This document shows, piece after piece, positions 22,688 through 33,475 of a DNA stretch of 64,000 nucleotides. Position 1 is the stretch's first letter. Each line of letters begins with the position of its first letter. The notes below the pieces were generated by a model, which saw only the letters and a program-made list of their open reading frames with translations, was not told the origin of the DNA and did not search any database. The translations under genes were made by a program, and so were the position numbers. Origin of the DNA: Lamellibrachia columna (taxonomy: Eukaryota > Annelida > Polychaeta > Sabellida > Siboglinidae); assembly GCA_963662155.1 (NCBI GenBank), contig OY759263.1:3984041-4048040 (forward strand), in the 5' to 3' direction.

Positions 22688-25470
22688 TTTAACAAGATTT
22701 ATCAAAATTGCCATCCAAGGCAAAGGCCCAGATGGCGAGTGGACAAGGAAGCCATTGGCTTATCGAAAATCAAAAAATTTAATATGTGTGTTATCTGCCC
22801 TCCTGAGATATGTGTCAACCTTGTTTTTAAACATATTCACGCTACTAGCAGTTACACAATCTGTAGGTAATTTGTTCCATTCATTGATTGTCCTCTGTGA
22901 GAACGATATCCAATCTGCACTGATCCTTTACTAATGTTACCTCATGTCATCTAGGTATATTATGTTTCTTGGGTGAGAAAAAAAATTCTATCAATATTTT
23001 CACACCCATTCAATATCTTAAAATATTAAATGTGATCCCTCTAAACCGCCTTGTCTCTAGGGTTGTTAAACCACATTATTTCAGTCGTTCTTCATAATAG
23101 TTGGTATGTTTGACGTTTGTAGGTTGTCTTCGTCCATCTATCCATCTATCCATCCATCCATCATCTAAGTGGAAAGGGGGCAGCATAACAAATATTTTTG
23201 GTAGTAAACATTGTTTAAACTAGAAGCGCAGGGGGGTTACTTAGAGGTGCCTCAAGCAGAACAAGAGGCCACTAGCACAGACAAACCAATAACAAAATGT
23301 TCGGAAAACATCTCTGAAACAGGTTATAAATGTGTGTGTTTAAATGCAAGGAGCATAGTAAATACGAACAACGAATGAAACATTATGGTAGAAGATATTG
23401 ACCCTCACATAATTGGCATAACCGAATCATGGGCCAACATAGACATAATAGATGCAGAAATAGGACTGACAGGATACGTAATGTTTAGGGAAAATCGAAT
23501 AGGAAGAAGGGGGGGGGGGAGTTATTTTATATGTTAAAGAATCTATTCAGGCTTATGAAATAAATTTAGAAAGGGAAGCTAATTGTGATGAAGCTGTTTG
23601 GTACAAAATAGTTTCAGGAAATAAAAATTAACTATTAGATTAGTTTACCGAAGTCCAAGCATAAACGAAGAGGATAACACAAAAACACAATATGCTATGA
23701 ACGAAGTTATTAAAGGGGAATGTATCGTAATGGGAGATTTTAACCATGGACACATACAATGGAAATCTCTAGAGAGTGCAGGGGTGAGGACCAACAATTT
23801 CTATTTTTAATTCAGGATAGCTTCCTTACTCAGCACTTGCTTGAACCAACCACGGGAGATAATGTATTAGATATAGTTTTGTCATCACATAAAGAATTAG
23901 TGGACAATGTAAAAAATACTTTAACCATTGGGTAACAGTGATCTTAATCAAATACATTTTGACATCAATGTAAAATCAGAAAGTAAAAATAAAAAAACGT
24001 ACAGGAGAAACTTCCACAGAGGTAACTATAAAGATATGAGTAATTAGTATATAGATTGGAATAACATGCTGCTGAACAAGACCGCAATTGAATGTATTAA
24101 TATTCTAAAATATGAAATTGAGAGCATCGTCGCTAAATTTATTCCCTTGAAAAAAACAAGGAAAACTGTCTAAAAAGAAACACTTGTCAAAAGAAGCTAT
24201 TAGAAAAATAGTGTTCAAGCAAACTATGTGGAGGGTTTATAGGAGTAGCAGAACGGATGAAGACTATGCAAATTACAAAGAGGCACTTAATGCAGCTACT
24301 GCTGAAAGTAGACAATCTAAAAGAAGCTATGAGCAAAAACCAGCATATAACATAAAACATTACAGCAAGAGCTTTTATGTCAGAAGTAAACAAAACGTAC
24401 AAGACAAGTTCGGGACCTCTAGAAGACAGTGTTGGAAATATAATATCACAGAGGTTTTTAATGGCGGACGACCTAAATGGTTATTTCAGTTCAGTATTTA
24501 CCAGAGAAAATATTAATTCATTACCCGTTCCAGATGCTAAATTTCAGGAGGCTAAATCTTACTATTTAGGACCGTTAATTGTCATTCCAGAAATGGTAGC
24601 TAAAATAATAAAGGCAATGAAGGATAATAAATCACCGGGAGAGGATGGAATTCTTCCAAAACTACAAATAGAAACAATATAACAAGTCAGTATACCACTT
24701 GCAAGAGTGTTCGACTTGTCATTAAAAAAAGGAGTTGTTCCTTTTGAATGGAAAGAAACAAGGGTCATACCATTATTTAAAAAGGCTTCAAGAAATAAGT
24801 GAGATAATTACAAACCAGTTAGTTTAACGTCATTGATATGTAAATTATTGGAAAGGTTAATTAAAGAACATGTGGTGGACTTCCTTGTTAGGCATAAATT
24901 AGTAAATTAACCTCAACATGGATTCCTAAAAGCGAGTTCATGCTTAACAAATATGTTATGTTTTTTGGAAGAAATCACTAAGTGAATAGACGAGGGATCG
25001 CCAGTAGATTATTTACTTAGATTTAGTGCCACACCAAAGATCACTACTTATATTAAAAGCCCATGGTATCAGGGATGGCATAATGGACTGGATATGAAAG
25101 AACAATGGCTGACTGAGAGAAGACAGTGTGTTGTATTAAATAGAAAAGTTTGGGAGATACTCTTCTGGGTACTACTGTAAAAGAAAAGGACTTAAGAGTT
25201 ACAATAAGCGCTGATATGAAAGTTTCAGAGCAGTGTTATATTGCAGCTTCAAAGGGTAATAAAATTCTCGGGTTGATTAGGAGAAACATAACATACAAAG
25301 AAAAGAAGCTAATTATACCTCTGTGTAAAGCAATAGTTATACCACATTTAGAATACTGTATCCAATCGTGGACACCATATCGTAAAATAAGACCATATCG
25401 TAAGAAGGATATAGATAAGACTGAAAGCTTACAGAGGAGAGCAACTAAAATTATTCCACCAATATTCATG
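22688..25470. mobile_element. CR1 copy split by 5' inversion (twin-priming-like)
   Basis: 22688-23100 is the CR1 3' end on the minus strand, starting at the ORF2 codons for YEERLKECGL. 23165-25454 is the upstream part on the plus strand, from the end of ORF1 (LSGKG), through the endonuclease (GITESWANID near 23415, GDFNHGHIQW near 23735) and reverse transcriptase, to RRATKIIP. The plus part stops about 20 bp before the point where the minus part begins in element coordinates. This is the arrangement twin priming produces: an inverted 5' part with its internal-priming end at the outside. About 60 bp of filler with CATC repeats lies at 23101-23164. Stops and frameshifts are numerous. Confidence 0.8.
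24377..24682 (+). pseudogene. RT start region of the inverted CR1
   Basis: A short open piece of the CR1 ORF2 reading DDLNGYFSSVFTRENINSLP and continuing to NKSPGEDGILPKLQIETI. It aligns throughout with 49542-49838 but ends in a stop. It is a relic of the element described at 22688-25470. Confidence 0.8.
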
Positions 25471-25655
25471 TATCTCTTATACAATATTCATGTATCTCTT
25501 ATACAATATTCATGTGTATTTCAACTTCGCTCTTATCTCTCGCTTCAATTCCAAGGTATACAATTTTTTTTAATGTCACGTATTTTATAGTGCAATTAAA
25601 AGTGTTGTGTATTTTCAGCCGCCGACTTCGGTCCGTGGTCCGGTTATGGCCGGTG

Positions 25656-25661
25656 CATGTG
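25656..25661. repeat. 6-bp target-site duplication, left (CATGTG)
   Basis: CATGTG lies immediately outside the left terminal inverted repeat and is repeated at 31940-31945 outside the right one. Confidence 0.88.
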
Positions 25662-25717
25662 AGTAGTATACGGAGCCAGATGACCAAACAAAAGAGGTGA
25701 CCAGTGTTGGGAGGGAC
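25662..25717 (+). repeat. Left terminal inverted repeat
   Basis: 56 bp, matching the inverse of 31884-31939 at 53 positions. Its inner edge abuts polymerase codons. Confidence 0.88.
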
Positions 25718-27500
25718 TGAAGAAGGCCTCTTTCGATGGAAGTGCGGTATCGTCGAGTCTCTCCAGACAGTCCATGTACTCGTACGGGAAATGATATTTC
25801 GTGATCTCGCATCCGTACGCCTTCAGATACTTGTCGTAACTGAACCCGGGGGCTATGTAATTGGTCATATCTAGGAATTTCAGCTGATCCATCGAAAGAC
25901 ACATGAAAGTGTTGTTGCGTTTGATGAGGAAAACCAACCGATACCATCGTTCTCTTTGTCGTCTTGTTCCTTCTCCTCTTCTTCTTGTTCTTGTTCTTCT
26001 TGTTCCTCTGTCATTGACGTGGACAGGAAGTAGGGTATGAGGAACTGTTTGATGGCATTGAGATCATACTTACCCGAATTGAACCTAATGACGGGTAACT
26101 GATGCATCCATCCATAAAGTTGACCCATCAGCTTTTTGTATGGATTGGTCGCTGGTCGAGATTCCTTGTCGTTGGCTGATCATGCAGCCTGCTCCCGTTC
26201 GTCCTAGTTCGTCAGTGCCTCTGCGAGTTGTTCCAACACATCCTCGTATGAGTCTTTGATCTTGTCGTACGCGGCGTCACTCATCGCTCGCAACATATCC
26301 AACATGGCGCTCACCAACTTGTTGGTTTCTCCATCCGTGACGAGACATTGAACTTGCTCGTGCCCAGGCACGTTGGATGCCACGCTGACACTCAGTGGGA
26401 CGTGATGCGCAACCCAATGGACCTTGTCACTGTCCGACGGAAGTTGTTCGGTGTCGAACCAACACTCAAAGTCAAAAATGGCTCGGTACGGATAGTACGG
26501 CAACGATTCGGACACTCGAATGTTCTCATCGTCCAGACGTTCGAACACTGATGGAGTCGAATGGTACACGCCGCCAGGATAGACTCGACGCACACACCCC
26601 GTACACGTGCGCTCGTGTTGACGTAGCTTCGATGCGTATTTCCATAACGAGTCACCGCACTTCCGACAAAGATACGAGTGACAGTACATGCGTACATCTT
26701 GGATGAAGGAAAAATGTGTCTCGTGAAGGTTGAGATACATTGTTTCGGGATAATGGCATAACGATCGACGGACCAGTTCGGCGGTCGACGTACCATCTTC
26801 TGCATCCGGTTTGACGAGCTAGTACACGCACACGTTCGTTTGGAACGTGGTCTCTACGCGATAGAGGTCATCCAACGTGACCCCAGCAAATTCTTCCATG
26901 GGTACATCGTCTTGATCGTATGCCTCGTACAGCCTCTTCACCGCCGGTTCCAATCGATGTAGATCGCATCCTCGATGCAGGGCCAGACACCGGAAGAGAC
27001 ATAGGTTATCATTGTACCTCTTGTTATGGTTGGGTTCCTTTTCCAGACCGATGAGGCCTTTTTTCTTCTTGGTGTAGACTGGAAGGGGGGTCGCACGTAC
27101 ACATCCTATGATGGTCGATGATGCGGTTGATGAAGAAGGTGACATTGCACACCCACGCAAAATACGGTATTTGATTGATGGCCCATTGCAAGATGTCGGT
27201 TTCTCGGATGCGTTCGAGAAAGACATCAAAGTCCTTGGTGTTGGTGATGAGACTGGGCTCGTCCAGGTAGCGTCCACAGCAATTGCCCGAGGAATGATAG
27301 TACTTGTATCGACCCGCGTGCCTGTTCTTCAGAACGAACCCGTAACTGAAGTTAATCTAGAACGCGTTGGTCTGTTCCTGGAACATGATCTTCAAAGGAG
27401 GTTCTAGAACGGTCTTGTCTAGCGTGGTTAATTTGTAATCGTACCTGCATTGGAGGGGACCTCTCGATACGCGGGTCCTAATGGTCGACCAGTGTCTCAA
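25718..27500 (-). pseudogene. Type B DNA polymerase, N-terminal half, decayed
   Basis: On the minus strand, in order: a basic N-terminal region (about 27500-27100), NKRYNDNLCLFRCLALHRGC (about 27050), a Cys2-His-Cys finger (YLCRKCGD...HERTC, near 26660-26600), exonuclease motif I in AIFDFECWFD (DxE, near 26473), exonuclease motif II in FNSGKYDLNAIK (near 26075) and the block KFLDMTNYIAPGFSYDKYL (near 25870). This is the protein-primed viral/organellar DNA polymerase B family (DNA_pol_B_2). The polymerase palm motifs are absent because the left inverted repeat truncates the gene at 25717. In-frame stops lie at 27357 (TAG), 26819 (TAG), 26204 (TAG) and 26180 (TGA), with frameshifts near 27075 and 25940. 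It cannot make a working enzyme. Confidence 0.87.
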
Positions 27501-27614
27501 GACGAAAATACAAGATAAGTAAAATGATACAGGGTATAATAATACACATAATACATTAATATCGTTCATGTGCTAAACTAATGTTCATGTAGCACTAAAG
27601 AAGTAATGTTCATG

Positions 27615-27616
<2 letters not shown>

Positions 27617-27670
<54 letters not shown>

Positions 27671-27772
27671 GCGTGTGCGTGTGCGTGTGCGTGTGCGTGT
27701 GCGTGTGCGTGTGCGTGTGCGTGTGCGTGTGCGTGTGCGAGTGCGTGTGCGTGTGCGTGTGCGTGTGTGTTC
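27617..27772. repeat. (GT)n then (GTGTGC)n microsatellite
   Basis: About 45 bp of GT repeats pass into a regular 6-bp GTGTGC array of about 105 bp. It separates the polymerase from the stop codon of the proline-rich gene. Confidence 0.97.
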
Positions 27773-28861
27773 TTACAGTTGCCATGGGTTGTAGGCGATC
27801 ATTTGTTCTTGTATGTAATTTTGCCATTCAGGCGAGTTGATTGTGTTGGTGAGGGAGTGACATATGTCTTGAGTTACTTCGTTTAGTCTTTTCGATGTGA
27901 TCTGACTGGTTGACATGATAGGATAGGACACCCCTTCCTCAATCATAATGTTACATGCCGCTGGTTCTATCAGCGGCACTGGTGGTCGTGATGTTAGGTA
28001 GTACGTCGTATCCTCCTCCTCCTTGCATGTTGGTGGAGGTGTTGCTGGGCTGAATTCGAATGTTGGTGTTGGTGACTGCGAATGAGATGGCGGAGACAGT
28101 GGAATCGACGTTGGTGGTGGTGGCGTCACCATTGATGACGTCGGCATCTGCGACTGCGAGTGGGATGGTGGTGGTGGGGGTGGCGTCGCCATTGATGACG
28201 CCAGCGTCTGCAACTGCGATGGTGGAGACAGTAGGAACGACGGCGGTGTGGGTGGTGGCGTCATTGGCGATGCTGCCAGTCTTCTTTTTTAATAGCACCA
28301 ACCGAAGGTCGTTGTCGGTCAACGGCGGCGTGATTCGCTTGCGCGACGCCGCCGTCGCTGCCTTCATCGTCGTCCTCTCCATCTCCTCGTATGCCGCTCG
28401 CTGTTGCTCTAGACCGATAATTATCTATACACAGGAAAAAAGGCCCACCTGTTTAGTCACTGTCAGTAACATCACCCTTACCTGCGTATTGTCTGGTTAT
28501 GGTCGCTCTGACCGTGTCCTTCATATCGAGACGCCATTGCATTTTCCCCAACCTCTCCTCCAACGCTATGACAACCAACGCAAGATGTGTAGGATCAGAC
28601 CGGAAGATGATACTCATCTTCCGACAGATCTACGAACCACCTCGTCACACGCATAACGAACGCACGCTGCATCTACCGCTGCGTCGACGGTCTATTGATT
28701 CAACATGGCTTCCGTACGATTCCAAATTATAGTTATGTTGTTTACCGTTACCTGTATTTCATCGTTGATGCCGCTGTTGCTGTTACTACTGCTTATGACT
28801 ATGACATTAGATGCATTGTTACTTACAGCAGCCTCATCATCAGCATGGTTATCATCGTCTG
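27773..28861 (-). CDS. Spliced coiled-coil/proline-rich protein of the element
   Basis: Three putative exons join in phase. 28861-28752 (after TTCTTATAG, ends CAG before GTAACG) is acidic and Ser/Asn-rich. 28629-28482 (after GGTTCGTAG, ends CAG before GTAAGGG) reads LALVVIALEERLGKMQWRLD, likely helical. 28408-27773 begins EQQRAAYEEMERTTMKAA, passes a basic stretch (SRKRITPPLTDNDLRLVLLK), then a long Pro/Ser/Thr-rich tail, and ends EWQNYIQEQMIAYNPWQL. Between about 28282 and 28264 the reading frame moves by one base, so there is a frameshift or a missed intron. I recognise no family; position next to the polymerase suggests an element-encoded structural or regulatory protein. Confidence 0.5.
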
Positions 28862-29199
28862 CTATAAGAAGGGTCGGTGCTGTAGAGGAAGTCGATGACG
28901 AACATCCCAGTAGAATATCGTCCTATCCAATATGACAGGAGGATACGCAGGGCGAACCTGTACACGGGAGCCCTTTGCCATTGGTGAAAGGAACAAAAGT
29001 AGCCATTGTTCTGTCTCTGCACGCCTTTAAGACAGTGAGGACACGATGCATACACGACGTATTTATCTTGCGTGGCGCAATTGACTATTGTTAACGGCCT
29101 TGTAAATTTGTAGGTTCTCTTACTCACCTCATATTGCAGATGCGTCAGTTTCATCATCTGCTGTGATGACTGCGCGTCAACGAAGTGCTGCTTGGCCAT
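28852..29199 (-). CDS. RPA-like single-strand DNA-binding protein
   Basis: A 115-aa frame starting at an ATG in a strong context (GCGCCATGG). Residues 50-72 hold CPHC...CSFH, a CxxC-x12-CxxH finger, followed by VYRFALRILLSYWIG, which fits the zinc-ribbon-in-OB-fold of the replication protein A large subunit C-terminal domain. The second half of the fold is short and ends at a TGA at 28852. Known relatives bind ssDNA during replication; here it lies between a NADAR gene and a DNA polymerase in one mobile element. The acceptor TTCTTATAG at 28862 lies inside its 3' end, so it may instead be the first exon of the proline-rich gene. The domain call is moderate because only one zinc-ribbon half is typical. 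Confidence 0.6.
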   Translation of the reverse strand: MAKQHFVDAQSSQQMMKLTHLQYEVSKRTYKFTRPLTIVNCATQDKYVVYASCPHCLKGVQRQNNGYFCSFHQWQRAPVYRFALRILLSYWIGRYSTGMFVIDFLYSTDPSYSRR

Positions 29200-29263
29200 G
29201 GCGCTGTCGAGTCAGTTGATCGATCGATCGAGAGCGGTTATGCCCGTTGGAGTGGTGGGTCGC

Positions 29264-29272
29264 CTTATATAA
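29264..29272 (-). promoter_or_regulatory. TATA box of the RPA-like gene
   Basis: On the minus strand TTATATAAGG lies about 65-70 bp upstream of the ATG at 29199, a normal TATA-to-ATG distance with a short leader. The repeated CGATCGATCGAT sits between them (29218-29231). Confidence 0.55.
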
Positions 29273-29370
29273 CATGTTCATTCGTGTTGTGCTGATAGCG
29301 CACATTCCTATGTACACCGTCGCGTCTGGTTTGGCGATGCGTCTGGGCATGTTTCGTGAGGAGTCAGGTT

Positions 29371-29798
29371 TTATTGAATGAACTCACGTCGTTCCATGAG
29401 TATCTGACCAAGTACGTTCTGTCCCGGCTGTCCAGTGTAGGTGAGCATGCTCCGGAAACCTTCCCTACTTCTTACGCATTCTTTAACGGTGATTGCTGCT
29501 TGTCTAACAACAGTTTGCGTAGTCTTGTGTCGCGAAATTTAATGGCGACTAATGCATACATTACAGCCCGTCTCTGTTTGATCCATTGTGCACGTAAATG
29601 TACCTTCTCTCGGATGGTCTTGCTTAGGTATTTCGCCTGTAGTCCAGTTTGTGTGGCTAGCATTTTTTCCGCCTTATCCATATCGCCATAAAATACGCAT
29701 TTCTTCCACATATACGCGGCTTCTAGGGTGTTAAAAGTAAGGCCCCATGCATGTATACTGCACACGTAGAAGACAGGAAACTGTTTCCTCCTCTGACT
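29371..29798 (-). pseudogene. NADAR (YbiA-like) domain protein, frameshifted
   Basis: The open frame (29798-29472) reads FYVCSIHAWGLTFNTLEAAY, then KYLSKTIREKVHLRAQWIKQ, then RRAVMYALVAIKFRDTRLRK and LLLDKQQSPLKNA before a stop. The missing C-terminal block, GQNVLGQILMERREF, lies immediately downstream in the next frame and ends at TAA 29371. Together these are the successive blocks of the NADAR domain (DUF1768/YbiA), a family linked to NAD/ADP-ribose chemistry, including removal of ADP-ribose from guanine. The usual Glu-His pair of the T-x-E-H block is Glu-Ala here. There is no good ATG for the domain start, so an upstream exon is likely missing. The frameshift near 29465 makes it a probable pseudogene. 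Confidence 0.8.
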
Positions 29799-29973
29799 TT
29801 ATGTTGCTCAAAATGACATGCACTGCATTTAAATACGACTGGTATGCAACGTTCGCCTAGGACGCAGTGGCTTTGTTTTTACGCGTGATAAATGGGTTTT
29901 GGGTTTCAGCGTCGGGTAGCTGACAGCTTATCGCAACTGTTTTCATTGTAATGAATTTGTTATTGTTCTAGTG
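29799..29973. other. No gene seen
   Basis: Short stretch between the NADAR frame and the promoter-like boxes. Any missing 5' exon of the NADAR gene would be expected here or further upstream. Confidence 0.4.
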
Positions 29974-30156
29974 GCTTACGCCAGCTGTACGTCGACTGTC
30001 TGGGATTTCTTTTCGCATTTCTTTAGATTATGAGGAATTTGGTATTGTTCTGTGTGCGGCTTACGTCAGCTACATGTCCTAACACGTTTATAGCATTTCT
30101 TTTGTTCTATGTAGCTTACGTCAGCTGTCTGCATTGTTTAACGCTTGCTATATAAG
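29974..30156 (+). promoter_or_regulatory. Promoter-like array: three GCTTACGTCAGCT boxes and TATA
   Basis: GCTTACG(C/T)CAGCT occurs at 29974, 30059 and 30114, each in a similar TTGTTCT...GGCTTACGTCAGCTG context. A TATATAAG box follows at 30149-30156, 22 bp after the third copy. The inverse of the box, AGCTGACGTAAG, contains TGACGTAA, a CREB/ATF-type site. The direction of the TATA box suggests transcription to the right, towards 30732-31002. Confidence 0.45.
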
Positions 30157-30731
30157 ACTGCTGAGACTAGTGATTTATATATATATATTTATATATATAT
30201 ATATATATATTATATAGTACAAACAACAATGTATATATATAGTACGTGTTGTTGTTTGTACGAGTGCTCGCTAATACATACACCTATACAGTGAACACTT
30301 TTACAATGCATCTATATAACACATAGTTTAACTTTAACAATTTTAAAATGCATCTATATAGCACATAGTTTAACTTTAAAAGACATACCGTTATACGACT
30401 GTGTAACGTTTTGATAGTTCTAGTTTAAAAAATACGCCGTCGCTTGCTTGCGGTCCTGAGGTCGTAGGGTCACTGATATGGCCTGCGCTTGTTCTACTTC
30501 TGGACGCCGACTAGGCAACTGCTAGCAGTCTAGCGATAAAAAACACCAGTCAGCCGACTTCACTGCTGGTCTGGTTCAAAGTACGCCTCTCGTTGCTTGG
30601 TAACCCTTACTCTCTTGTTTCACATACTCTATTAATACACATATGTTGTGTGTGAAATATATATAGCGCGCTGTACCGTTAACAAAGGTTCGACTTCCAT
30701 GTGTCTCACTCCAGTTTTCATTTCATTTCAG
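30157..30731. other. No gene seen; possible leader intron
   Basis: Contains a TA-rich run (30178-30222), a repeated CATCTATATA(A/G)CACATAGTTTAACTTTAA block at 30308 and 30351, and TATATATAGCGCG near 30660. Nothing codes. Confidence 0.45.
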
Positions 30732-31002
30732 CTTTCATCGTCAGCAATGGACGAACGTGATGACAGAACTGATATCCACCATGCCATCCGTGGACGACGA
30801 CGATGATGGCTACGACAGCCCCCAGCGGACAGAGGATTGGAACGAAGAATGTAACCAAGGTGCGGCCTTACTCGTCCATAGACGGGTGTCGACGAAAGTG
30901 ATGGCCGAACTCATACAGGGCAAAGCCCGTTGCTGGACAGACGCGGTCGGTCACTGCCACCAATGGACCTCAGTTCCTGCGGGTGCTGTCGACAGTGTCT
31001 GA
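30732..31002 (+). CDS. Putative small acidic protein, unknown
   Basis: A good splice acceptor (TTTCATTTCATTTCAG) ends at 30731. The open frame from the ATG at about 30757 gives about 80 residues beginning MTELISTMPSVDDDDDGYDS and stops at TGA 31002. No family is recognised. It lies downstream of the promoter-like array and would be the only plus-strand gene of the element. Confidence 0.3.
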
Positions 31003-31107
31003 ATAATTATATACTATACTATAATGCCGTCCATGAATAAACCAGACGCGGTCGGGGTCACTGCTACTGCTATAATATAATGCTGTCGGTAAATGATTAT
31101 ATGCTAT

Positions 31108-31116
31108 ATATATATG

Positions 31117-31161
<45 letters not shown>
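31108..31161. repeat. (TA)n microsatellite
   Basis: Almost pure TA run with the interruption TATGCTATATAT near its left end. Confidence 0.95.
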
Positions 31162-31166
<5 letters not shown>

Positions 31167-31589
31167 TTTCACCATTTTAACATATAACAAAGATCGCTTG
31201 TATTGTTATTACATATGCTGTTTTGTTGGTTTATAACTACGCTAACAAAATAAATACGACCACATTTCACCCTGCTACCAGATCATAACCCAGCGGTCGC
31301 ATGTTCATACATGCAGCGTACAAAATGTAGGCGTACATGTAGGCTATACAATACATACTATCACATTATCACATTATATTGAAAACTTTTCGTTTGATTA
31401 CGTCTTATGGCCAACGTCTATACACTGACGTTATACACTGACGTCAATACCACACTTGCAACATTGTCGCTAATTCCGCCTGCGCTTACAACTTTTTTTC
31501 ACTGATTACGACGGTACAGTTGCAACATTTTTACTGATTAGCATCCTTTGATCTCGCATTCCGTTTTACAGCTGGATAGACGACAGCCG

Positions 31590-31830
31590 ACAACGGGTTG
31601 GGGTTAGAGTTATCTCCAGACGTTACGGAGACGGGTTAGAGCTAGGGTTAGCCCACCATTTGGGGTTGGAGTGGAGGTCACTCCGTTAAGGTTAGGGTCA
31701 GAGTCAGGGTTCACCGCAGACGACAAGTTAGGGCTACACAGATGTCAGCAGGTTGGGATTAGAGTTAGAGTTAGCTCCAGTCGACAGGGGCGGGTTAGGG
31801 TTACGGATAGGGTTAGTGTTCATCGCCAGG
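31590..31830 (+). repeat. GGTTAG-rich degenerate block
   Basis: About a dozen GGGTTAG/GGTTAGRG/GTTAGAGTTAG words are scattered over 240 bp just inside the right terminal repeat. They resemble the metazoan telomere word TTAGGG but are not in regular tandem. Two CCGTTA/TCTCCAG-containing sub-blocks recur (near 31605 and 31770), so part of the block is itself duplicated. Confidence 0.6.
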
Positions 31831-31883
31831 GGCGCTCAGGCTACACAGAAGGTTGTGCGGTTGTGCGCATCCGGAAACCGGAT

Positions 31884-31939
31884 GTCCCTCCCAACACTGG
31901 TCACCTTTTTTGCTTGGCCATCTGGCTCCGTATACTACT
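31884..31939 (-). repeat. Right terminal inverted repeat
   Basis: Inverse of 25662-25717 with three mismatches. It ends ...CCGTATACTACT followed by CATGTG. Confidence 0.88.
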
Positions 31940-32682
31940 CATGTGCGATCTGCGCGAGTACAGAAGCCGCGTTTTTGATAACGAGTCGTGCGTGGGAGAT
32001 TACTTCTATAGTCGTCCCTGTGTCGGCATCCCCCTCATCTTGTCGCTGTGCGTGCGCCCCCTCGTCTCGCCTTTTGCCTGCGTCCCCCTCAACCCAGCAG
32101 GTACAGTGCACGTTGACGGGTTCCACCTTTGTTCCTTTCTCACTTTTATTAAAAAAAACATATTTAAGCAACTGTGAATAATATTGTGAAGCAGCTAGTT
32201 ATGCAGAATTATGTACACACTATCAGTGCATGCATATCAAATTACCAATACCTCTTAAAGGAAATAATCTAGCATATTATGCTACTATTTAACCCCAAAT
32301 GTTGCAATTACATGCCTGGTGGTGGCCGGCGCAGAAAGCGTGTACGACATCGTAGCGGGTCCGTGCGACTGTCAGAACTACTGACATGGAGTACATCGCC
32401 TACCAGCGAGCGTGCAACCCGTGTGAGGTGTGGGACCAGGGCGTGCTGACTTGTGTCAGGGACGCCAGCAAGGGAGACTGCACGTTCGCTCCAACTACAT
32501 AAGGAATTGGTAAGACTCATTCAGCCGAATGACCGAATGCAGTCTAGACTCATTAAGCTTTCATGAATTGAATGTACACATTCTGTTTGCGGTTTGACGT
32601 ATCAAGTTCATAAGTCATGTTCGACCAGCCATGAATGAAAATTATGTTGAAAATAGTATGTCACATGAGTACAAATGTATGC
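31940..32682. other. Intergenic, no gene seen
   Basis: Begins with the right CATGTG target duplication (31940-31945). Overlapping open frames at 31940-32180 on both strands show no protein-like pattern. Confidence 0.5.
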
Positions 32683-32868
32683 TTTATTAGTTAGTGTGTT
32701 ATGTTACATATTATTAAGCCACAGAGAGAAGATTTAAAGCACACTTTATTAGTTAGTGCGTTATGTTACATATGATTAAGCCACAGAGAGAAGATGCAAA
32801 GCACACTTTATTAGTTAGTGTGTTATGTTACATATTATTAAGCCACAGAGAGAAGATGTAAAGCACAC
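32683..32868. repeat. 62-bp tandem repeat, three units
   Basis: Units begin TTTATTAGTTAGTGTGTTAT at 32683, 32745 and 32807; a fourth partial unit starts at 32869. It directly follows the 3' end of the LINE fragment at 32880-33475 (minus strand). Confidence 0.93.
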
Positions 32869-32879
32869 TTTATTACCAG

Positions 32880-33475
32880 CAAGATGTCGAGGTCCATCGC
32901 GCGTAGCATCGTGGATGCTTTTTCACGGGAAGCCAATGCAATTGCCTCAGTACGTCGGACATCGATTGTCTATCACCTCGTCGGATCTGGAGGACGATTC
33001 GTGCCGCCGACCGCTGCACCATGTCCAGACGGTGTAAGAGAAGGTGTGGTATATGCCGAATAGCATGGCATTGCTGTAGTCAATGCGTGAAGTTACAAAT
33101 GCATGCAGTAGGCATTTGCACACACTGGATGTTATGGAGTCTCGTATCCGTGCAATTCGAGCTAGATGGTAGTTTGCACTCCGATGTGCGTTCGCAACCC
33201 GTGACCCCATAGAGAGGTTAGCGTCAATGACGAATCCCAGATCCCTGACGACAGCAGATGTCGCCACTAGCTCACCACGCATGCAATGGCTATTGGCACG
33301 CGCAGACTCGATGACCGGATGACAATGGCTTGCGATGTTCTCTCGTTGAGGATGAGCCCATCGTCTGCTAGCCAAGTCTTTACGTCTCGGATGCAACCCT
33401 CCATTCGTATGACCGCATCTACATGATCAGTTGGCGGGAAGTCGACACACAGCTGCGTGTCGTCAGTATACAGGC
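32880..33475 (-). pseudogene. LINE reverse transcriptase fragment (L2-like)
   Basis: On the minus strand the catalytic box YTDDTQLCVDFPPTD starts near 33470, followed by MEGCIRDVKTWLADDGLILN, VVRDLGFVIDANLSMGSRVA, NAHRSANYHLARIARIRDSI, HAFVTSRIDYSNAMLFGIY and, after a frameshift near 33050, QRSAARIV and LRQLHWLPV. This block order is diagnostic of the L2/jockey group palm and thumb. The sequence is GC-richer than its surroundings. N-terminal RT and endonuclease are missing. Confidence 0.9.

What the first reader, a model, noticed from the sequence alone, without database searches (positions are those of the whole stretch)
25656..31945. Short Polinton/Maverick-like element with clear ends and target duplication
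The 56-bp inverted repeats start AGTAGTATACGG and are bounded by CATGTG on both sides. The 6-bp duplication and AG termini are established Polinton hallmarks, and a type B DNA polymerase piece is inside. At 6.3 kb it is far shorter than autonomous Polintons and its gene set is unusual (no integrase, ATPase or capsid seen). The left repeat abuts polymerase codons, so it arose by internal deletion or by terminal capture.
Basis: partly seen in the sequence, partly recalled or inferred. Interest (0 to 1): 0.9.

Follow-up and report, generated by a model that had tools for sequence, protein, structure and literature searches.

The report
Deleted Maverick (Polinton) virus-like element
A 6.3-kb piece of DNA in an animal genome is the shrunken, broken remnant of a virus-like mobile element (a Maverick or Polinton) that landed inside a host exon, and its longer relatives carry two extra genes that we did not find described for such elements.

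Summary
A 6,278-bp element (25662-31939) has 56-bp inverted ends (53 of 56 identical), the Maverick end motif AGTAGT...ACTACT, and a perfect 6-bp duplication CATGTG. Twelve paralogous exons on C2 run uninterrupted through the insertion point; the three I read hold a single CATGTG. The interior matches longer copies in the same genome. One of about 15.7 kb carries an rve integrase, a chromodomain and a polymerase palm, plus capsid-, ATPase- and protease-like ORFs that I name from position and recall. The left repeat is joined to polymerase codons at a 3-bp match (GAC); 39 of the 40 scored junction matches lack this join. So this is an internal-deletion derivative, single copy as far as scored. 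Its genes are broken. The new part is the parent lineage: it carries an RPA-C-like gene (PF08646) and a NADAR gene (PF08719; 150 of 150 scored candidates matched). 51 of those 150 lie within 16 kb of a capsid-like match, 47 of them in the same order and orientation. My paper searches found no NADAR in Polintons.

The parts
25656..25661 (.). target-site duplication CATGTG, left copy
   Evidence: single copy in three empty paralogous sites
25662..25717 (+). left terminal inverted repeat, 56 bp, starts AGTAGT
   Evidence: 53 of 56 identical to the right end
25715..25718 (.). deletion junction: TIR joined to polymerase codons across GAC (3-bp microhomology)
   Evidence: other scored copies match only from 25715 on
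25718..25937 (-). polymerase piece with exo III-like motif, cut off by the TIR
   Evidence: motif name recalled
25880..26128 (-). polymerase piece with exo II-like motif
   Evidence: motif name recalled
26204..26740 (-). polymerase piece: zinc-finger-like part and exo I-like motif
   Evidence: 253 homologs among 273 candidates; alignment
26819..27277 (-). polymerase N-terminal piece with OTU-like motif
   Evidence: OTU reading by eye, no Pfam hit
27111..27356 (-). terminal-protein-like piece in another frame
   Evidence: by eye against P0114
27773..28382 (-). two overlapping low-complexity ORFs with counterparts in the C7 copy
28852..29199 (-). RPA C-terminal-domain-like ORF (broken)
   Evidence: 24 homologs, 20 with precomputed PF08646
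29472..29765 (-). NADAR domain ORF, middle part of the gene (broken)
   Evidence: PF08719 40.9 bits, cut-off 35.1; 38 homologs
30757..31002 (+). small ORF recurring in other copies
31540..31883 (.). inner part of the family's roughly 400-bp TIR, kept at the right end only
31884..31939 (-). right terminal inverted repeat, 56 bp shared with the left end
31940..31945 (.). target-site duplication CATGTG, right copy
25619..25661 (+). host exon, part before the insertion (follows TTTTCAG)
31946..32039 (+). host exon, part after the insertion (3' limit not determined)

Best explanation
This is the remnant of a Polinton/Maverick provirus-like element. Shown: it sits in a host exon between 6-bp duplications; it belongs to a large family in this genome whose longer members carry an rve integrase, a polymerase and capsid-like ORFs; and a deletion removed the inner left TIR, the integrase-to-capsid block and the polymerase palm, leaving a 56-bp tip joined to the exonuclease half of the polymerase across GAC. 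What remains has decayed. Inferred: the parent replicated by protein priming and was inserted by its rve integrase; the deletion arose by microhomology-mediated end joining, more likely after insertion (about 60%) than before; the parent's RPA-C-like protein covers single strands during replication, and its NADAR enzyme removes ADP-ribose adducts or signals made by the host.
For: Ends, TSD and (AGT)2 motif (motif in PMC8097293). Twelve uninterrupted paralogous exons, three of them read with single CATGTG. Interior collinear with longer C7 and C14 copies. rve 51.9 and 50.2 bits, chromodomain above cut-off in C7. Junction sequences and uniqueness among 40 scored of 931 candidates.
Against: Polymerase identity rests on one weak PHROGs hit (E 1.9e-4) plus recalled motifs; Pfam and PDB give none. 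Capsid, ATPase and protease names are from recall and position; Pfam and PHROGs find nothing and PDB nothing useful for three of them. Both structure models were useless. The right end of the C14 copy and the outermost left tip of the C7 copy were not found. Time of the deletion is not settled.
Confidence: 0.9

Rival explanations
1. The 6.3-kb form existed before insertion as a defective linear genome and was replicated and inserted in trans by full-length relatives.
For: Both tips and a perfect TSD are intact; other shortened copies also keep both ends and 6-bp duplications, though I chose them for paired ends.
Against: No second copy with this junction among 40 scored of 931 candidates; the C6 copy shows several separate internal gaps, so deletions without multiplication are common.
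Confidence: 0.35
2. Terminal capture: the left repeat comes from another copy that landed next to a polymerase fragment.
For: The left repeat abuts polymerase codons.
Against: One TSD pair brackets the whole, and the empty exon is continuous; interior and right end are collinear with the C7 copy.
Confidence: 0.03
3. Assembly artefact: repeats collapsed a longer element into a short one.
For: The family is large, which is hard for assemblers (500, 931 and 1,460 first-look candidates).
Against: Flanks, TSD and exon frame fit one clean insertion. Reads were not available, so this is not excluded.
Confidence: 0.04

Closest known systems
Vertebrate Mavericks/Polintons (PMC8097293)
   Same: (AGT)2//(ACT)2 ends, 6-bp TSD, rve integrase and polymerase in relatives; length (about 15.7 kb) and TIR length (about 400 bp) of relatives fall in the published ranges 12.7-24.6 kb and 46-1,447 bp (section 7).
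   Different: The window copy is 6.3 kb and lacks the integrase and palm. In the C7 copy the genes lie on one strand apart from the small ORF, and RPA-C-like and NADAR genes are added.
Adintoviruses (PMC11071296, passages)
   Same: Polymerase with an OTU-like N-terminal part (by eye) and an rve integrase with chromodomain.
   Different: Hexon recognition by BLASTp, part of their definition, was not tested; no RPA or NADAR in the passages seen ('nadar' 0 times).
Viral NADAR proteins (PMC9503650, passages)
   Same: Stand-alone NADAR domain in a DNA virus-like genome.
   Different: That survey lists phages, giant viruses and RNA viruses; the words polinton, maverick and virophage do not occur in its main text.

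Membership tests
Polinton/Maverick | (AGT)2//(ACT)2 or similar end motif | tested here: met
   AGTAGT...ACTACT; motif from PMC8097293
Polinton/Maverick | 6-bp target-site duplication | tested here: met
   CATGTG on both sides, single in three empty sites
Polinton/Maverick | terminal inverted repeats | tested here: met
   53 of 56 bp; about 400 bp in two relatives
Polinton/Maverick | protein-primed type B polymerase | tested here: inconclusive
   window holds only the exonuclease half, broken; palm in relatives: one PHROGs hit E 1.9e-4, no Pfam hit
Polinton/Maverick | rve integrase | tested here: not met
   absent from the window copy; present in the C7 and C14 relatives. Hence filed as a deletion derivative, not as a complete member
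Polinton/Maverick | capsid, packaging ATPase and protease genes | tested here: inconclusive
   absent from the window copy; in relatives ORFs named by recall only, no profile support
Adintovirus | OTU-bearing PolB plus hexon reciprocally recognisable by BLASTp, rve integrase with C-terminal chromodomain (PMC11071296) | tested here: inconclusive
   relatives: rve and chromodomain met, OTU by eye only, hexon not tested
Multi-copy non-autonomous (MITE-like) family | many copies of the same short form | tested here: not met
   1 of 40 scored junction matches, out of 931 candidates
Ginger transposons | 4-bp TSD | tested here: not met
   TSD is 6 bp; Ginger values from PMC2836005 passages

The most novel reading that the evidence does not exclude
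This animal genome hosts a large Polinton lineage that acquired a NADAR de-ADP-ribosylating enzyme and an RPA-C-like protein and keeps them under selection. The NADAR disarms an ADP-ribose-based host (or rival-virus) defence during replication, so animal Polintons take part in the ADP-ribosylation conflict known from phages, giant viruses and RNA viruses.
Probability: 0.45. Interest if true: 0.65.

Novelty: new variant of a known kind. Interest (0 to 1): 0.5.

Why it matters
The element is a clean worked case: ends, target duplication, paralogous empty sites in an exon, a long relative and the deletion junction come from one genome. The wider point is the parent lineage. NADAR enzymes reverse ADP-ribosylation and are discussed as tools of virus-host conflict (PMC9503650, passages), but I found none reported for Polintons (searches named in Tried and rejected). 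150 scored NADAR matches in one animal genome, 51 of them within 16 kb of a capsid-like match, make the role of such an enzyme in an endogenous virus-like element testable.

Tried and rejected
Polymerase identity by profiles: no Pfam hit to a polymerase in the pieces scanned, one weak PHROGs hit (five further proteins gave no polymerase family and one exonuclease family at E 0.094), nothing useful from PDB. Viral-contig scans with three proteins confirmed no relative, nor did tblastn in phage records. Two structure predictions failed (mean pLDDT 45.4 and 32.9), so no fold search was run. Rejected: Ginger (4-bp TSD), MITE-like family (junction seen once), terminal capture (continuous empty site). 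The host exon looks thrombospondin-repeat-like by eye only; Pfam gave nothing. Tip matches L006 (L012-L013) and L007 (L014-L015): no partner end found in the 20 kb read; L012-L013 held none of the interior genes, L015 only a protease-like piece.

Paper coverage: PMC8097293 section 7 whole plus passages; PMC12220804, PMC2836005, PMC9503650, PMC11071308, PMC10120064, PMC11071296, PMC2871265 and PMC9004415 passages only; others search listings only. That NADAR in Polintons is not in print rests on (0 papers with 'Polinton' and 'NADAR'; 'Maverick' and 'NADAR': 15 papers, 8 listed, off-topic by title and abstract; 12 of 83 listed) and on word counts in single papers, open-licence papers alone. For RPA the basis is weaker: searches (5 papers; 5 papers, 4 listed), of which I looked inside one (PMC12220804, where the phrase is a chance match).
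Full report
1. The observation. The inverted repeats are real: 25662-25717 and 31884-31939, 53 of 56 bases identical; similarity ends abruptly at 25717. Both sides carry CATGTG, at 25656-25661 and 31940-31945. About 3e-19 such pairs are expected by chance in the window under an equal-base model. The element proper is 6,278 bp.

2. The empty site. I joined the two host flanks with one CATGTG and searched the window's own genome (880 Mb, 30 contigs). All 15 candidates were scored. Two rows are the window's own halves. Twelve rows lie at C2:35.75-36.11 Mb and run through the joint at 81-84% identity. One further row is a weaker partial match at C2:17.38 Mb (70%, query 20-140), also across the joint. 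I read three of the twelve: each has a single CATGTG at the same place. One frame is open across the site in all three and in the joined window flanks. These are paralogous, not orthologous, empty sites. The element therefore split an exon, just after a TTTTCAG splice-acceptor-like sequence.

3. Contents. On the minus strand lie pieces of a polymerase: a terminal-protein-like piece and an OTU-like piece (both by eye), a zinc-finger-like plus exo I piece, an exo II piece and an exo III piece, in two frames with stops between. Exo motif names are recalled; that Polinton polymerases carry a terminal-protein part followed by an OTU-like part is from PMC11071308 (passages). The exo I piece has 253 homologs among 273 candidates (120 listed). 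Then come an RPA-C-like ORF (24 homologs, 20 with PF08646; three database copies score 38.6-48.4 bits against a cut-off of 28.5; the window piece itself gets no such hit) and a NADAR ORF (40.9 bits, cut-off 35.1; 38 homologs; three of them match profile positions 10 to 162-163 of 163). A small plus-strand ORF at 30757-31002 recurs in other copies.

4. Longer relatives. A copy at C7 (L008 and L009, read as separate pieces) aligns with the interior at 79-93% in separate blocks and spans about 15.7 kb, from C7:5685315 to about 5700981 (positions worked out). Its outermost left tip is missing next to LINE-like sequence. Past the window's junction it carries a polymerase palm ORF (PHROG DNA polymerase, E 1.9e-4), an rve integrase (51.9 bits, cut-off 32.6) and a chromodomain (26.5 bits, cut-off 25.1). 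It also has ORFs that I read as ATPase, penton, major capsid and protease. Those four readings come from recall and position only: Pfam and PHROGs gave nothing, and PDB searches of the penton-, capsid- and protease-like ORFs gave no supporting match (the ATPase-like ORF was not searched there). A copy at C14 carries the same order; its integrase scores 50.2 bits, its chromodomain is below the cut-off (22.5), and its right end was not found in the 20 kb read. None of these relatives' ORFs matches the window.

5. The junction. Right TIR...GGGAGGGACATCC. Polymerase in L009 and L011...GTCGACTGAAGAAGG. Window...GGGAGGGACTGAAGAAGG. The shared GAC is 3 bp. A probe across the junction gave 40 scored matches out of 931 candidates. 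Only the window copy spans it; the other 39 start at 25715 and are 95-98% identical from there. So the deletion is shown, and no second copy of the short form was seen among those scored.

6. Other shortened copies. The right-end search gave 42 matches (40 of 500 candidates scored); five pairs of facing ends stood out by position. I read three in full and the two ends of a fourth, and left a C8 pair unread. C5, 4.2 kb: AGTGTG/AGCGTG (5 of 6). C13, 6.5 kb: CATTAG on both sides (6 of 6). C15, 6.9 kb: TTCGAT/CTCGAT (5 of 6). C6, 10.0 kb: TTCGGT/TTCTGT (5 of 6), with a changed right tip. A chance match of 5 or more of 6 is 0.46%. TIRs of the first two are about 400 bp at 93-94%, of the third 203 bp at 90%. 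The C6 copy has several separate internal gaps relative to C7. Internal deletion thus recurs in this family. Of the seven places matching the 56-bp tip, two are the window's; C7 and C14 belong to longer copies; one is a pair of facing tips (L003); two showed no partner in the 20 kb read.

7. NADAR is a gene of the lineage. The protein search in the own genome scored 150 of 856 candidates and all 150 matched. Of the 19 best loci other than the window's, 14 have the RPA-C-like gene within 1.5 kb, and 18 have either that or the small ORF (two near-identical pairs of loci are counted singly). The capsid-like ORF also gave 150 matches of 150 scored, out of 1,460 candidates. Of the 150 NADAR matches, 51 have a capsid-like match within 16 kb, 48 of these on the same strand, 47 downstream; the median distance of the 48 is 12.5 kb. 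Random placement of the capsid-like matches gives a mean of 0.82 and a maximum of 4 in 200 trials. The other 99 cannot be called unlinked, because only the best candidates of each search were scored. In the protein database the three genes share contig lengths: polymerase with RPA 5, polymerase with NADAR 6, RPA with NADAR 3 (only 120 of 253 polymerase rows were visible).

8. Selection. Among 22 NADAR loci, 14 had no stop in the compared stretch; the 8 with a stop were left out. Of their 91 pairs, 83 had usable dS above 0.05 and gave a median dN/dS of 0.38 (quartiles 0.33 and 0.54). Pairs with the window copy range from 0.24 to 0.82. Loci were picked by protein similarity and stop-free copies were kept, both of which lower the ratio, so this is suggestive only.

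9. Mechanism. Shown: integration with a 6-bp duplication, loss of the integrase-to-palm block, and decay of the rest. Inferred: protein-primed replication, integrase action, end-joining origin of the deletion, and an anti-defence role for NADAR. PMC9503650 (passages) lists NADAR in phages, giant viruses and RNA viruses and argues for action on host ADP-ribose products.

10. Placement. The window copy is a deletion derivative of a Polinton/Maverick lineage, not a complete member. The lineage is a new variant by its RPA-C-like and NADAR genes, as far as the searches named in Tried and rejected reach.

Noticed in passing
31540-31939; TIRs in L009, L010, L012, L015, L056 (both), L057, L058, L069: Ten 400-bp TIR stretches hold 30 telomere-like CCCTAA motifs read inward from the tip, against about 4 expected from base-transition resampling. 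The copies are related, so this is not ten independent cases.
   Followed up: partly
G000:C2:35.75-36.11 Mb; window 25619-25661 and 31946-32039: At least 12 paralogs of the target exon, cysteine-rich and thrombospondin-repeat-like by eye, cluster on C2; the window copy on C3 is a diverged dispersed one.
   Followed up: partly
L003, about 1434-1556 (G000:C10): Two TIR tips face each other with almost nothing between; a minimal element or two leftover ends.
   Followed up: no
window 24184-25590 (+), 32947-33396 (-); L010:7367-8656 (+): Reverse-transcriptase-like LINE ORFs, read by eye, flank the element and lie inside the C14 copy.
   Followed up: no
window 32682-32875: Three tandem copies of a 62-bp unit, 94-99% alike.
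   Followed up: no
G000:C7:13533620 and G000:C4:3950029: A NADAR match and a capsid-like match are listed in open frames of 1,884 and 1,923 aa.
   Followed up: no
L058:168-365: An integrase-like piece lies just outside the left tip of the C15 short copy, which may be nested in another copy.
   Followed up: no
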